Source: Candidatus Campbellbacteria bacterium CG10_big_fil_rev_8_21_14_0_10_35_52
GTDB taxonomy: Bacteria; Patescibacteriota; Minisyncoccia; Phycocordibacterales; UBA2163
DNA length: 14,680 nucleotides
NCBI GenBank assembly: GCA_002778715.1
Contig: PFAA01000040.1
Coordinates: 1 to 14,680, forward strand
Reading direction: 5' to 3'
This document shows positions 1 through 13,369 of this stretch, piece by piece (positions within the stretch are counted from its first letter, which is position 1; each line of letters opens with the position of its first letter). A model generated the notes under the pieces. The model was given only the letters and a program-made list of their open reading frames with translations, was not told where the DNA came from and searched no databases. Position numbers and translations under genes: made by a program.

Positions 1-4
1 GCAA

Positions 5-325
5 TTGAAAAATGAAGCTCTTGTGATATGGAAACATATCCAAGAGCAAAAAAAAGAAAATTATAAGAGTTCTCTTTCTCTTATAATTGAAGAGAAAGAA
101 AAAGAGAAAAGCCGACAGGAGGAGAGAGAATTGAAAAACCTCCTGCGTCTAAAAGACGCTCTGGAGTTAACGAAAGATTTCGTTGACTCTGGTGGGGTTC
201 AGGAAAGAGATAATCTGTTAGTAGTCGGATACGACTACTACAGAGGAGAGTTAGCGCCAGTTTGGGCTGACTTCTCTCAAGAGCTCTCAAAACTGAAAAG
301 CTTTGAAGCTCTCAAGAGAGAATAA
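5..325 (+). CDS. Hypothetical charged protein, possibly not translated
   Basis: This is an open frame of 106 codons from TTG at 5 to TAA at 323-325. It is open to the left edge, so the true start may lie outside the window. I do not recognise the protein. Residues 10-60 are rich in Lys, Glu, Gln and Arg and would form a charged, probably helical or coiled-coil segment. The C-terminal part is more mixed and includes GYDYY and PVWADF. There is no signal peptide or membrane segment. Codon use departs from the genes downstream: GAG, GAC, TAC, CTG and CTC are frequent here, while those genes favour GAA, GAT, TAT and CTT. Nearly all of the frame also lies inside consecutive perfect or near-perfect hairpins (separate entry), which an ordinary coding sequence would not show. 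It may be a small foreign gene with a structured mRNA, or a chance open frame across a structured RNA. Confidence 0.35.
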   Translation: MKNEALVIWKHIQEQKKENYKSSLSLIIEEKEKEKSRQEERELKNLLRLKDALELTKDFVDSGGVQERDNLLVVGYDYYRGELAPVWADFSQELSKLKSFEALKRE

Positions 326-346
326 GAAAATTATTTTCTTATTCTC
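17..346 (+). ncRNA. Candidate structured RNA: chain of consecutive stem-loops
   Basis: Reading by eye gives these helices in order: 17-23+25-30 with 35-40+41-47 (bulged T24, GAAA loop); 59-69 with 78-88; 116-122 with 139-145; 145-150 with 154-159 (AAA loop); 161-175 with 178-192 (three G-T pairs); 214-217+219-227 with 232-240+241-244 (bulged T218, GATA loop); 245-258 with 264-277 (two bulges); 280-312 with an internal bulge, a mismatch and a GAAA loop; and 318-330 with 334-346 (13 bp, TTA loop). The linkers are A- or purine-rich. GNRA-type tetraloops, single-base bulges and G-T pairs are typical of folded RNA rather than of DNA palindromes. A strong terminator follows directly. The 5' end may be outside the window. 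I see no hallmark of tmRNA, RNase P RNA, 6S RNA or SRP RNA. The strand is inferred from the terminator. Confidence 0.42.
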
Positions 347-349
347 ACC

Positions 350-410
350 AGCGTCTTATTTGTTTAAGCATTAAATATTATGCCAAACAAATAAGACGCT
401 TTTTTTATTT
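350..410 (+). terminator. Intrinsic terminator after the 5' structured region
   Basis: Arms 350-365 and 385-400 form a perfect 16-bp stem around a 19-nt loop that has its own small GCAT/ATGC pair. The stem ends in a run of seven T (400-406) and a further T-rich stretch to 410. It ends whatever is transcribed from the left edge. The stem base (AGCGTCT/AGACGCT) repeats the sequence of the small hairpin at 145-159, so the two could exchange partners. Confidence 0.85.
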
Positions 411-411
411 A

Positions 412-456
412 ACATATAAGGCAAGTCGGACTTGTCTTATATGTATTATATTTTTT
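412..456 (+). terminator. Second tandem hairpin with T-rich tail
   Basis: Arms 412-425 and 431-444 pair over 14 bp with one G-T pair and a 5-nt loop. They are followed by ATTATATTTTTT (445-456). The hairpin sits 11 bases after the stem of the first terminator and looks like a back-up terminator. The tail is less regular than in the first. Confidence 0.6.
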
Positions 457-506
457 GTAGTTTAGCGACCTTGGCGATTAATTATGTAGATAATGATAAT
501 AATAAT

Positions 507-528
507 TTCATACGATATATCGTATGAA
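507..528. repeat. 22-bp perfect palindrome, copy 1 (operator-like)
   Basis: The half-site TTCATACGATA is followed by its exact reverse complement. The inner 20 bases recur at 568-587. A short, perfect, duplicated palindrome in an intergenic region fits the binding site of a dimeric helix-turn-helix repressor. No regulator gene is present in the window and I cannot name the family. Confidence 0.6.
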
Positions 529-8097: not shown

Positions 8098-9819
8098 ATG
8101 TCATCTACAGTTGAAAAAATAAAAGACCGTTTGAATATTGTGGATGTTGTCAGCCAGTATATAAAACTTGAAAAAGCTGGCAATAATCTTAGAGCGAAAT
8201 GCCCGTTTCATAATGAAAAAACTCCTTCTTTTTTTGTATCGCCACTTAGAAATTCTTACTATTGTTTTGGGTGCAATGCGAGCGGAGATATCTTTTCGTT
8301 CGTTGAAAATTTTGAGGGGGTTGATTTTATGGGAGCTTTGAAAATATTAGGCGAAAAGTCGGGTATTCCGATTGTGTTTGAAAAAAAGACCGCTAAAGAT
8401 GAAAGGTCTCGTCTGTATAATATTATGGAAGAAGCTTGTTTATTCTTTGAAAAAAATTTGAAAGCCGATTTAAACGATAATATAAGAAAATATTTAAAAA
8501 AAAGAGGTTTAAACGAAGAAACGATTAAAAAATGGAAAGTGGGGTATTCTAGTTCGTCTTGGAGCGGGCTGTATGATTATTTGAGAAAAACTTTTATAGC
8601 GACAGATATAGAAAAAGCGGGACTTATAAAAAAATCCGATGAAAAAAACGATAATTATTATGATAGATTTCGCGACAGAATAATGTTTCCTATTTCAGAC
8701 AGTTCCGGAAGAATTATCGCTTTTTCTGGAAGAATTTTTAAAGAAGACGACAAAAACGCCAAATATATAAATTCTCCAGAGACACCGCTGTTTAGCAAAT
8801 CAAAAATTTTATATGGTTACGACAAAGCAAAATTTGCGCTCCGAAAATTAAATTTTTCAATCATAGTTGAAGGACAGATGGATTTATTAGCGTCTCATCA
8901 GGATGGTTTTACAAATACCGTAGCTGTGTCGGGAACAGCTCTTTCAATGGAACAGCTTAATCTTTTACGCCGACTTTCAAACAATATTGTTATGGCATTT
9001 GATTCTGATTCAGCGGGTGTGGCGTCATCGGGTAAAAGCGCTATGCTCGCGCTCTCACTTGGTATGGATGTGAAAGTTGCCAGATTGCCGTCAGGAGAGG
9101 ACCCATCATCAATTATATTAAAAGATAAAAACATATGGAAAGACGCGATTAAAAATTCAAAACACATTGTGGATTTTTATCTTGATATGTTTTTTGAATC
9201 AATAAATGATAAAAGAAAATTACATTTGAAAATACAGCAGATTGTAATCCCGTATATAGCAAAAATACCGAATAAAATAGACCAAGCTCATTTTATTTCC
9301 ACAACTGCGGCGCGTCTTGGCGTATCGGAAGATATTATACGGGAAGAGACATACAAGGTTTTGGAAAATAAAAATTATAATACAGATTATAATATTGATT
9401 CACAAAATTCGTTCAGAAAAGATGAAAAAGAGATTTTTTTATTAAAGAGAAGTTCAATAGAGAAAAAGATAGCGTCTATAATCAATTGGCAAAAAAGCAT
9501 AGACAATCCGATTATTGATATAAAATCCACAATCAATAAATTAGAAATTATTTTAGGTATTGAAAATACCAAACGCTTAATAAATGAAAATAAAAATACA
9601 GAAAAGTTTATTTTTGAATCAGAACATATATATGCAAATCATACGGATTTACAGGAAGATTTAGACGACCTTTTGCTTCATTTGGAACGAGAATGTCTGA
9701 AAGAATCTATGGATAAAATATTGGATGAACTAAAATTGGCGGAGGCGGAAGACGATTCGGATAAAATATCAGAAGCATTAAAGAAGCATAAAAAAATTTC
9801 AGGCAAATTAAACAAATAA
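8098..9819 (+). CDS. dnaG: DNA primase DnaG
   Basis: This 573-residue DNA primase makes RNA primers at the replication fork together with the replicative helicase. Domains in order are the CHC2 zinc finger with C35, H38, C56 and C59; a primase core with [10 protein letters not shown] (190-199) and [13 protein letters not shown] (222-234); and the TOPRIM fold with EGQMD (E258) and FDSDSAG (D302, D304), the metal-binding acidic residues. Residues from about 420 to 573 are charged and poorly conserved, where helicase-binding domains usually lie. The length is normal for the family. The ATG at 8098 gives a standard N-terminus ([18 protein letters not shown]). It lies 92 bp after rpoC with no clear terminator or promoter between them, so read-through from rpoBC is plausible. 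The sigma gene follows after 28 bp, the usual dnaG-rpoD pairing. Confidence 0.97.
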
Positions 9820-11990: not shown

Positions 11991-12007
11991 AATATTTATA
12001 ATATTCT
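11989..12007. repeat. Small A+T-rich hairpin
   Basis: AGAATATT (11989-11996) and AATATTCT (12000-12007) form a perfect 8-bp stem with a 3-nt loop, directly after the preceding terminator. The centre contains TATAAT, but no -35 box lies at a proper distance, so I do not call a promoter. Confidence 0.45.
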
Positions 12008-12024
12008 TGCAGTTACAATATGTC

Positions 12025-12130
12025 TATGAATTACGAAACGCAAAAATTTAGGTCCTCGCTCGCAAAATCTTTTTATTTTTTAAATGTTTTTGCTCAATAG
12101 ACCATAAATTTTTGCGTTTCGTAATTCATA
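12025..12130. repeat. Long perfect inverted repeat ending at the tgt start
   Basis: Arms 12025-12050 and 12105-12130 are perfect 26-bp reverse complements. The stem extends inwards by four pairs (12051-12054 with 12100-12103) past a single unpaired A12104. The loop is T-rich and contains a smaller GCAAAA/TTTTGC pair. The right arm ends three bases before the ATG of tgt. In a transcript containing both arms, the region just upstream of the tgt start would be locked in a stem. The layout (terminal inverted repeats, about 106 bp, no gene) would also fit a miniature mobile element, but I see no clear target-site duplication. Confidence 0.8.
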
Positions 12131-12133
12131 AAT

Positions 12134-13369
12134 ATGTTTAAGATTGAGAAAAAACTTAAAAATAAATTCGGCAGAGTCGGGGAATTTATAACTCCAAATG
12201 GTATCATAAAAACACCAGCTTTTATCGTTGTCGGAACGAAAGCCACGGTGAAATCACTCTCGCCGGAACAAGTCAATAATCTCGGCGCGCAAGCGGTGCT
12301 TGGCAATACATATCATTTATATTTACAGCCAGGCGATGATATTATAAAAAAAGCAGGTGGATTGAATAAATTTATGAACTGGAATGGTCCGACTTTCACC
12401 GACTCCGGCGGTTTTCAGGTGTTTTCTCTCGGCGAAGGATTTAGTTCTGGTGAAAATAAATTTAAATCTCAAAAAAATATTTTAAATCGCTCTTTAAAGA
12501 TTTCAAGTAAAATTCAGAATGTTCATACAAAATTAGTAAAAATAAAAGAAGACGGCGTGGAATTTCGTTCTTATATAGACGGAAGCAAACATTATTTTAC
12601 TCCTGAAAAATCAATAGAAATTCAAAATAATATCGGGGCAGATATAATATTCGCTTTTGATGAATGCTCTTCGCCATCCGCGGAATATGATTATCAAAAA
12701 GAGGCGATGGAGAGAACGCACAGATGGGCAAAGAGGTCTCTTTATTATAATAATCATCACTACCTGAAGAACTCGGGGGTTCAATTTCCAAGTTCTTCAA
12801 ACGGAAATAAACAAGCGTTGTTCGGAATCGTTCAAGGAGGAAAGTTTGGAGATTTACGAAAAAAAAGCGCAAAAGTTATAGGCGGAATGGATTTTGACGG
12901 TTTCGGCATAGGCGGGTCGTTTTCAAAAGAAGGATTAGACGAAACGCTTCGTTTTGTTAACGGTATTTTACCGGAAGAGAAAATAAAACATTTGCTTGGC
13001 ATAGGAGAACCGATTGATTTATTTATAGGAATTGAGAATGGAATAGATTCATTTGACTGCGTTTCTCCAACACGAATCGCGCGCACTGGAATGTTATATA
13101 CAAAACACGGAAGAATAAATATCATAAAAGCGGAATACTCGCGCGATTTTTCAAAAATAGAAGACGATTGCGAATGTTATACTTGCAAAAATTACACAAA
13201 AGCGTATCTTTCGCATCTTTTCCGCGCTCAAGAAATGTTCGCTTCAACTCTTGCGTCAATTCATAATTTATATTTCATAGTTAATTTAGTGAAGAATATA
13301 AGACAATCAATTTTGGATAAGAATTTTTACGAATTAAAAGAAAAATTTTTGAAAAAATATTATGCGTGA
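12134..13369 (+). CDS. tgt: tRNA-guanine(34) transglycosylase
   Basis: Tgt exchanges guanine 34 in the anticodon of GUN tRNAs for a queuosine precursor (or queuine). Residue names in brackets are from the Zymomonas mobilis enzyme. Visible residues are D90 in TDSGGFQVF (D102, general acid/base), D176 and C178 in FAFDECSSP (D156, C158), Q234 in GIVQGG (Q203), the nucleophile D308 in FDCVSPTR (D280), and the zinc ligands C346, C348, C351 and H377. The substrate-pocket segment that reads LAVGE in Zymomonas is SFSKE here (262-266). At 411 residues it is longer than usual because of an extra stretch at about 101-136 and a smaller one at about 212-225. No queuosine-synthesis gene is nearby, so the incoming base may be salvaged. 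The ATG at 12134 gives the expected N-terminus; it lies just after a long hairpin and overlaps uvrB at its end. Confidence 0.96.
   Translation: MFKIEKKLKNKFGRVGEFITPNGIIKTPAFIVVGTKATVKSLSPEQVNNLGAQAVLGNTYHLYLQPGDDIIKKAGGLNKFMNWNGPTFTDSGGFQVFSLGEGFSSGENKFKSQKNILNRSLKISSKIQNVHTKLVKIKEDGVEFRSYIDGSKHYFTPEKSIEIQNNIGADIIFAFDECSSPSAEYDYQKEAMERTHRWAKRSLYYNNHHYLKNSGVQFPSSSNGNKQALFGIVQGGKFGDLRKKSAKVIGGMDFDGFGIGGSFSKEGLDETLRFVNGILPEEKIKHLLGIGEPIDLFIGIENGIDSFDCVSPTRIARTGMLYTKHGRINIIKAEYSRDFSKIEDDCECYTCKNYTKAYLSHLFRAQEMFASTLASIHNLYFIVNLVKNIRQSILDKNFYELKEKFLKKYYA

What the first reader, a model, noticed from the sequence alone, without database searches (positions are those of the whole stretch)
17..346. 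Unbroken chain of about nine stem-loops coinciding with a small open frame
Successive segments fold locally into hairpins: 17-47, 59-88, 116-145, 145-159, 161-192, 214-244, 245-277, 280-312 and 318-346. Features include two GAAA tetraloops (31-34, 295-298), bulged T24 and T218, G-T pairs and A-rich linkers, and a strong terminator follows. Nearly every base outside the linkers is paired with a neighbour. That is far beyond what coding sequence shows, and this density of hairpins is not seen elsewhere in the window apart from intergenic regions. The codon use of the overlapping frame is also unlike its neighbours. This could be a new structured RNA, or a small mRNA built to be structured. The 5' end may be missing.
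Basis: partly seen in the sequence, partly recalled or inferred. Interest (0 to 1): 0.75.

Follow-up and report, generated by a model that had tools for sequence, protein, structure and literature searches.

The report
Protein-coding message packed with RNA hairpins
A small gene of an uncultured Patescibacterium is written so that its coding message folds into a nearly continuous row of hairpins, and a diverged relative has hairpins at the same places although much of the sequence has changed, which suggests that the shape of the message itself matters.

Summary
Window 1-346 folds far better than shuffles (z -9.3). The overlapping ORF (2-325) is a real gene, cut by the contig start at base 1. 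Its one homologue found, in Ca. Campbellbacteria genome G003, is a full 147-codon gene, 64% identical over 105 codons without gaps. Against nulls that keep the protein both genes are extreme (z -6.8 to -8.4); 19 segments of neighbouring genes are not (-0.4 +/- 0.8). The nine hairpins of the window's local fold have counterparts at the aligned positions, some with compensatory changes, some re-formed in a shifted register. Redrawing only the codons that differ destroys the folding (0 of 400 reach the real value, both ways).

So this is a protein-coding message maintained as a hairpin chain. Why is inferred: most likely its fold protects a strongly transcribed message. Inverted-repeat conversion is the main rival. 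The trait recurs in a few unrelated genes of the order, notably a lysozyme-like gene lying between 16S rRNA and tRNA-Ile. My searches found no such bacterial system described; hairworm mitochondrial coding palindromes come closest.

The parts
2..325 (+). Small protein-coding gene, 3' 107 codons; 5' part beyond the contig start
   Evidence: Open frame; homologue of 147 codons in G003, 64% identity over 105 codons, no gap
17..47 (+). Hairpin 1, 13 pairs, GAAA loop; outer stem shares its columns with the homologue, inner stem is shifted in register there
   Evidence: pair 17-47 is G-C here and T-A in the homologue
73..99 (+).
110..150 (+). Hairpin 3, core CAGGAGG/CCTCCTG at 116-145
   Evidence: counterpart at 111-150
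155..199 (+). Hairpin 4, core 161-192; pair 172-181 is G-C here and A-T in the homologue, both changes synonymous
214..244 (+). Hairpin 5; pair 220-239 is A-T here and G-C in the homologue
   Evidence: counterpart at 219-240
245..277 (+). Hairpin 6
   Evidence: counterpart at 244-277
280..312 (+). Hairpin 7, GAAA loop
   Evidence: counterpart at 279-313
318..346 (+). Hairpin 8, 13 pairs, overlapping the stop codon 323-325
   Evidence: counterpart at 314-354 before allowing for the indels seen
350..407 (+). Terminator-like hairpin 350-400 followed by a run of T
   Evidence: Sequence; 92% identical over 51 bases in G003, with a compensatory change in the inner stem
412..453 (+). Second terminator-like hairpin 412-444 with T-rich tail

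Best explanation
The region is the 3' part of a protein-coding message whose coding sequence is maintained as a chain of local hairpins of roughly 30-45 nt. SHOWN by computation: a conserved frame; folding far beyond what protein and codon use require; hairpins at the same places in a diverged homologue; and structure kept by the very codons that changed. INFERRED: the folded state is selected at the RNA level. The homologue's operon has a perfect -35/-10 promoter, a hairpin just before each Shine-Dalgarno sequence and a terminator. I therefore think that the nascent and free message folds at once into hairpins that leave few single-stranded stretches for RNases, Rho or re-annealing to the DNA template, giving an abundant, long-lived message that ribosomes unzip one hairpin at a time. 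The protein is probably membrane-anchored with a long helix; its own function is unknown.
For: Synonymous-shuffle z -6.8 and codon-draw z -8.4 for the window, -7.1 and -7.4 for the homologue, against -0.4 +/- 0.8 for 19 control segments. The homologue ranks 1 of 200 frames in G003 (z -10.4, next -5.4), the window frame 3 of 397 in G000. Nine hairpins with counterparts at aligned places; 3 two-sided and 4 one-sided changes that keep standard pairs among 51 shared pairs. 0 of 400 redraws of the differing codons fold as well, in both directions; redrawing only synonymously different codons 0 and 3 of 400. Pairing profiles correlate 0.67 against 0.50 +/- 0.07, 0 of 150. Stem positions changed less than unpaired ones at each codon position (no significance test). 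Promoter 12 of 12 in G003; 13 of 360 background regions reach 11 or 12. Sense fold more stable than antisense in both family members (-113 v -104, -141 v -106). In E. coli the 30% most abundant transcripts have more structured coding sequences than the 30% least abundant (PMC4619774, one section read).
Against: Only two sequences of the family are known, so covariation cannot be tested statistically. Several stems are not conserved pair by pair but re-formed in another register, and some window pairs are broken in the homologue. The antisense strand also folds far better than its shuffles, for the window as extreme as the sense strand. The strand-neutral count of G-U against A-C mismatches is 10 to 3 in this family but 32 to 20 (p 0.063) over nine hairpin-chain sequences, so RNA-level selection is not proved. 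Gene A of the same operon is not structured. A few other frames are as extreme without explanation (G000 L040 1739-1975; frames of G093 contig C2). Within the lysozyme-like family hairpins do not follow promoter score. No expression data. The window's own promoter lies beyond the contig.
Confidence: 0.5

Rival explanations
1. Inverted-repeat conversion: template switching at short imperfect palindromes repeatedly copies one arm onto the other, so that hairpins arise and persist without a function and are tolerated in dispensable small genes. High transcription, which exposes single strands, may favour it.
For: Hairpin 2 and the inner stem of hairpin 1 are replaced by hairpins of other sequence and register at the same place, with several base changes in both arms. 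Template switching is known to make and mend RNA stems (PMC8794818, abstract), and repeat conversion was proposed for coding palindromes of hairworm mitochondria (PMC6649704, passages). The gene is lineage-specific. Both strands fold well.
Against: Base differences are not significantly clustered: largest cluster 9 against a mean of 6.3 in simulations (8% reach it); 5 clusters of four or more against 4.5 expected. The process would have to be confined to a few genes: gene A next door has none, and most frames in three genomes are near zero. G-U mismatches outnumber A-C ones 10 to 3 in this family. Chromosomal lysozyme-like genes have chains, phage relatives mostly not.
Confidence: 0.25
2. Dual-function RNA: the transcript acts as a structured RNA in its own right (for example binding a protein or an RNA through several hairpins) besides coding for a protein.
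For: Folding covers the unit through the terminator and extends into the 5' part of the homologue; hairpins before both Shine-Dalgarno sequences differ by a compensatory pair; strong promoter.
Against: Loop sequences and pair register are not conserved as for a binding site or ribozyme. No Rfam match. No non-coding relative in 98 genomes by covariance model. Frame conserved throughout.
Confidence: 0.15
3. The hairpins act as single-stranded DNA, for example in recombination or transfer of a mobile element.
For: The antisense strand also folds far better than its shuffles; the gene is absent at this place in G001, G002 and G004.
Against: Sense is the more stable strand in both family members. 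The hairpins run on through the terminator of the unit. No relative in phage or plasmid records or viral contigs.
Confidence: 0.05

Closest known systems
Coding palindromes in mitochondrial genes of Nematomorpha (PMC6649704; abstract, outline and passages seen)
   Same: Inverted repeats lie inside working protein genes, both arms code for conserved residues, and several lie at the same place in related species.
   Different: There: perfect repeats up to 284 bp in mitochondrial core genes. Here: short imperfect hairpins in a row along a small bacterial gene, with register shifts between species.
Selection on local mRNA folding in coding sequences across the tree of life (PMC7063772; passages seen)
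   Same: Coding sequences can be under selection for local folding.
   Different: That is a weak genome-wide trend, weaker in endosymbionts and low-GC species; here single genes are extreme in small low-GC genomes whose other genes are near zero.
Template-switch origin and repair of RNA hairpins (PMC8794818; abstract and outline seen)
   Same: Stems re-formed with multi-base changes in both arms.
   Different: Described there for RNA genes, not for a chain inside a bacterial coding sequence.
Structured E. coli coding sequences of abundant mRNAs (PMC4619774; passages and one section)
   Same: Folding of the coding sequence goes with abundance of the message.
   Different: A correlation over many genes; no gene there was seen by me as a hairpin chain.
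Ribosome termination structure, RTS (PMC7518266; abstract and outline)
   Same: A stable hairpin at the end of the gene (318-346).
   Different: Here it overlaps the stop codon and is the eighth of a row.

Membership tests
Known structured RNA family (Rfam 15) | Match to a covariance model at the curated score | tested here: not met
   0 matches at gathering score in the window; lax search of 1-1085 gives 8 matches, best E 0.13, all far below gathering score
Non-coding structured RNA | No conserved protein-coding frame | tested here: not met
   105 codons aligned without gap, 27 of 67 identical residues with other codons
Dispersed palindromic element (REP, MITE, Rickettsia-type) | Copies elsewhere in the genome | tested here: not met
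   No hairpin has a full-length copy elsewhere in about 508 kb of G000 and 207 kb of G003 other than the homologous gene; short partial matches of 13-20 bases only
Group I/II intron or intron-borne frame | Intron structure around the frame | tested here: not met
   No Rfam match in the window or in L007
Type I toxin-antitoxin mRNA | Short hydrophobic toxin of under about 60 residues (recalled) | tested here: not met
   Homologue has 147 codons, mostly charged helix
Type I toxin-antitoxin mRNA | Antisense RNA repressing the message | not testable with these tools
   No expression data
Coding palindromes (Nematomorpha kind) | Inverted repeats inside a conserved frame, at the same place in relatives | tested here: met
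Coding palindromes (Nematomorpha kind) | Long perfect repeats | tested here: not met
   Stems of 10-19 pairs within the coding region, imperfect
Coding palindromes (Nematomorpha kind) | Shown to be transcribed and translated | not testable with these tools
   No reads available
Ribosome termination structure | Stable structure immediately downstream of the stop codon | tested here: inconclusive
   Hairpin 318-346 overlaps stop 323-325; next hairpin starts at 350

The most novel reading that the evidence does not exclude
Patescibacteria of this order have a class of 'armoured' messages: a few small genes in very strongly transcribed units, one of them lodged in the rRNA operon between 16S rRNA and tRNA-Ile, whose coding sequences are selected to fold as chains of hairpins. 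This would shield the RNA from RNases, Rho or R-loop formation, or store messages for bursts of translation on host contact. Hairpin position is conserved while sequence, register and even amino acids drift.
Probability: 0.3. Interest if true: 0.8.

Novelty: new variant of a known kind. Interest (0 to 1): 0.62.

Why it matters
A coding sequence normally gives way to the protein. Here hairpin and protein seem to be negotiated together along a whole gene, and hairpins persist where the protein has diverged. If selected, it gives a natural system for asking what whole-message structure does in bacteria (stability, R-loops, Rho, ribosome speed). If made by arm-to-arm conversion, it is a clear bacterial case of a mutational process writing protein sequence. 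The gene-specific recurrence, including a lysozyme-like gene inside the rRNA operon, makes both ideas testable by comparing relatives.

Tried and rejected
Homologue searches beyond the genus gave nothing convincing for this ORF: 98 relatives (apart from G000 itself and G003 only a weak 28% match in G067, E 0.006), 397 genomes of the order with the two-sequence profile, genome contigs (the one hit is G003's own record), viral contigs, phages and plasmids. Covariance model R1: besides the two sources four matches with E 0.02-0.7, one of them the other strand of the G003 gene; taken as chance. Pfam and PHROGs: no match above cut-off (best Pfam E for the window protein 0.0009, GLTP, below its gathering score). 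NCBIfam was tried once with a wrong coordinate and not repeated; PADLOC was not searched. Foldseek in the PDB: no match with E <= 0.001.

Other structured frames in the scans: frames with LAGLIDADG-like sequence (G000 L023, L044; named from recall, introns not tested), a frame overlapping RNase P RNA (G001 L116), a frame beside a tRNA (G093 L241, z -9.95; no Rfam family on it), a frame made of short repeats (G003 L089, -5.4). G000 L040 1739-1975 (-5.7) and several frames of G093 contig C2 (-5.9 to -4.7, among them a sigma-factor-like gene) stay unexplained and weaken the claim that such genes are rare.

Membrane-protein effect rejected as general: gene A in the same operon is unstructured. Promoter strength as sole cause rejected: no association inside the lysozyme-like family (7 of 19 loci score 11 or 12, one of them with z -0.2). 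Location in the rRNA operon as cause: not decided, since members there vary in z from -8.5 to -0.2.

Limits: one search reached 397 of 460 frames before its time limit; frames came from a mechanical caller, and long ones were cut to 450 or 600 nt. In one search the codon-draw null used window codon frequencies for both genomes. One search timed out and was replaced. One row (L099) was read on the wrong strand and is discarded; one search replaces it. L144 was dropped from the lysozyme-like z counts (under 270 nt), and 80 viral loci were reduced to 73 distinct proteins. That family was found because its G001 member topped a scan, so this member is not independent evidence; without it the count is 7 of 17. 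The sense-antisense comparison over 12 sequences includes eight chosen for a good sense z and is biased.

Full report
WHERE IT IS. Its genes read as rpoB, rpoC, dnaG, a sigma factor, an FKBP-type isomerase, tgt and uvrB (names from recall of the sequences). The nearest named relative, G003, matches MAG Candidatus Campbellbacteria bacterium RIFCSPLOWO2_02_35_12, contig MFAC01000001.1. The finding lies at the very start of the contig, so its 5' end is truly missing.

OBSERVATION. The fold is strong: z -9.3 for 1-346 and -9.5 for 1-317, with 0 of 100 shuffles as stable. Of 73 consecutive 200-nt segments of the window only the first three and 12001-12200, mostly intergenic, lie below -5. Its 59-88 is replaced by 73-99, and 145-159 is absorbed in longer stems. 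Pairing is 62% over 17-317 against 51 +/- 5% in 44 control stretches.

IT IS A GENE. The frame 2-325 has one homologue, G003 contig C1 8505-8948 minus strand, 147 codons, 64% identical over 105 codons without a gap. Of 87 base differences, 28, 18 and 41 fall on codon positions 1, 2 and 3; 27 of 67 identical residues use different codons. The homologue starts with a membrane-type segment behind a Shine-Dalgarno sequence and follows a 66-aa hydrophobic frame, 'gene A'. AlphaFold2 gives a membrane helix 2-25, a helix 32-100, a beta-hairpin 109-127 and a helix 129-146; the first two helices are mostly confident, the C-terminal part is not (mean pLDDT 72.9, pTM 0.32). No family or fold match was found. 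The gene lies upstream of rpoB in both genomes, in G003 with other genes between. In G001, G002 and G004 a ClpB-like gene is there instead (named from recall), and no match to the protein was found in those genomes.

STRUCTURE BEYOND THE PROTEIN. Shuffling synonymous codons gives z -6.8 (window) and -7.1 (homologue); drawing codons with the frequencies of neighbouring genes gives -8.4 and -7.4. Nineteen control segments average -0.4 (sd 0.8, min -1.8). Gene A is not structured (+0.3, +0.7). In per-gene scans with 20 shuffles the homologue is the first of 200 frames searched in G003 (z -10.4, next -5.4) and the window frame third of 397 in G000 (-5.5, behind L057 13967-14278 at -6.8 and L040 1739-1975 at -5.7). 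In G001, which lacks the gene, the two most extreme of 309 frames are -6.6 each: the lysozyme-like gene below and a frame overlapping RNase P RNA. Fifty-eight segments of 42 E. coli genes reach -4.0 at most. In G093 the lysozyme-like gene stands alone among 91 frames of contig C1 (-6.2, next -3.0), but of 300 frames of part of contig C2 three lie below -5, the extreme one (-9.95) beside a tRNA.

STRUCTURE MAINTAINED. Each of the nine hairpins from 17 to 400 has a counterpart at the aligned place: 17-47/16-48, 73-99/72-97, 110-150/111-150, 155-199/161-192, 214-244/219-240, 245-277/244-277, 280-312/279-313, 318-346/314-354 and 350-400/355-409 (the last two before allowing for the indels seen). 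The homologue's 5' part, not covered by the window, holds four more, though its excess stability is weaker (z -2.1 and -3.0). Of 92 and 83 pairs with probability above 0.5, 50 are at the same columns. Among 51 shared pairs at P > 0.3, three changed on both sides (17-47, 172-181, 220-239) and four on one side, all staying standard pairs; other window pairs, mostly at stem ends, are broken in the homologue. The inner stem of hairpin 1 and the whole of hairpin 2 are re-formed in another register with other bases. If only the 65 codons that differ are redrawn, keeping each protein, 0 of 400 redraws fold as well as the real gene in either direction; if only the 27 synonymously different codons are redrawn, 0 of 400 (homologue) and 3 of 400 (window) do. 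The pairing profiles correlate at 0.67, against 0.50 +/- 0.07 in redraws (0 of 150). Stem positions changed less than unpaired ones at codon positions 1, 2 and 3 (0.24/0.31, 0.12/0.25, 0.35/0.44; not tested for significance).

TRANSCRIPTION UNIT. In G003 gene A follows TTGACA-16-TATAAT, a perfect match. Of 360 upstream regions of longer G000 frames, 4 score 12 and 9 score 11. Each of the two genes is preceded by the same hairpin next to its Shine-Dalgarno sequence; the two copies differ by a compensatory pair (CTCGCT..AGCGAG and CTCGCC..GGCGAG), and no other copy of the whole element was seen in the G000 and G003 DNA fetched. The terminator hairpin at 350-400 is 92% identical in G003, again with a compensatory change in its inner stem.

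RECURRENCE. (a) A second small gene, G000 L057:13967-14278 and G003 L080:6009-6305 (about 52% identical), also carries a chain of hairpins. Synonymous z is -6.8 with 20 shuffles and -3.9 with a longer frame and wider span for G000, and -4.0 and -3.8 for G003. Its G001 relative is weak (-1.9; -2.7). Both chained copies lie 700-800 nt upstream of tRNA-Val on the same strand, and both have 11 of 12 promoter matches. (b) In G001 the top gene is a 162-aa lysozyme/transglycosylase-like protein with a hydrophobic N-terminus (best Pfam SLT, E 0.003, below cut-off). The family was found in 19 of 397 genomes of the order. Of 18 scored genomic copies 8 have z below -4, against 2 of 73 distinct viral relatives (Mann-Whitney p 2e-5; viral relatives limited to the best 80 of 342; phylogeny, GC and length not corrected). 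Of the 19 genomic loci, 14 show tRNA-Ile(GAU) downstream and 11 of these also 16S rRNA upstream, all on the same strand, within the flanks of at most 1.5 kb held. So this gene commonly sits in the rRNA operon spacer. Hairpin strength within the family does not follow promoter score or, as far as visible, location.

MECHANISM. Shown: a coding message kept as a hairpin chain. Inferred: the chain shields a strongly transcribed RNA. In E. coli the 30% most abundant transcripts have more structured coding sequences than the 30% least abundant (PMC4619774, section read), which fits but is only a correlation. Inverted-repeat conversion explains register shifts well and cannot be excluded. The strand-neutral count of G-U against A-C mismatches, which would separate RNA-level selection from a DNA-level process, is 10 to 3 here but 32 to 20 (p 0.063) over nine sequences; on the other hand base differences are not significantly clustered, as arm replacement would make them.

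WHAT IS KNOWN. The nearest published phenomenon that I found is coding palindromes of hairworm mitochondria (PMC6649704, abstract and passages). The listings of ten literature searches in an open-access library showed no bacterial gene described as a chain of hairpins; that library lacks most subscription journals, and I read only abstracts, passages and one section of five papers. I ran no literature search on a lysozyme-like gene in the rRNA spacer.

VERDICT. A real and unusual property of a small Patescibacterial gene, undescribed as far as these searches show; a new variant of a known kind (structured coding sequence), with the cause open.

Noticed in passing
L114:1611-2099 (G001) and loci L125, L127-L144: A lysozyme/transglycosylase-like gene lies inside the rRNA operon between 16S rRNA and tRNA-Ile(GAU), same strand: of 19 loci, 14 have the tRNA downstream and 11 of these also 16S upstream. 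Many copies have hairpin-rich coding sequences; it has hundreds of viral relatives (342).
   Followed up: partly
L057:13967-14278 (G000) and L080:6009-6305 (G003): A second, unrelated small gene with a hairpin chain; hairpins at similar places with different sequences, 700-800 nt upstream of tRNA-Val.
   Followed up: partly
window 506-527 and 568-589: Perfect palindrome TCATACGATATATCGTATGA, twice; its core occurs 9 times in 508 kb of G000, 2 times in 207 kb of G003 and not in 288 kb of G001.
   Followed up: partly
L007, about 8955-8990 and 9202-9236 (minus strand, G003): The same hairpin directly before the Shine-Dalgarno sequence of both genes of the operon, the two copies differing by a compensatory pair.
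   Followed up: partly
L007:8010-8321 (G003): TrpR-like gene (Pfam Trp_repressor, E 1e-5, just below cut-off) convergent with the homologue; no such frame was noticed at the same place in the window.
   Followed up: no
window 12001-12200: Strongly folded stretch upstream of and into the start of the tgt-like gene (z -7.3); no Rfam match.
   Followed up: no
L241:12801-13043 (G093): A frame with synonymous z -9.95 beside a tRNA, no Rfam match; perhaps an undescribed structured RNA.
   Followed up: partly
L023:6461-8400 and L044:16344-16853 (G000): Structured frames with LAGLIDADG-like sequence (named from recall); L044 also holds the 16S rRNA at G000:C22:13504-16081, drawn out to 2.6 kb. Probably intron-borne; not tested.
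   Followed up: no
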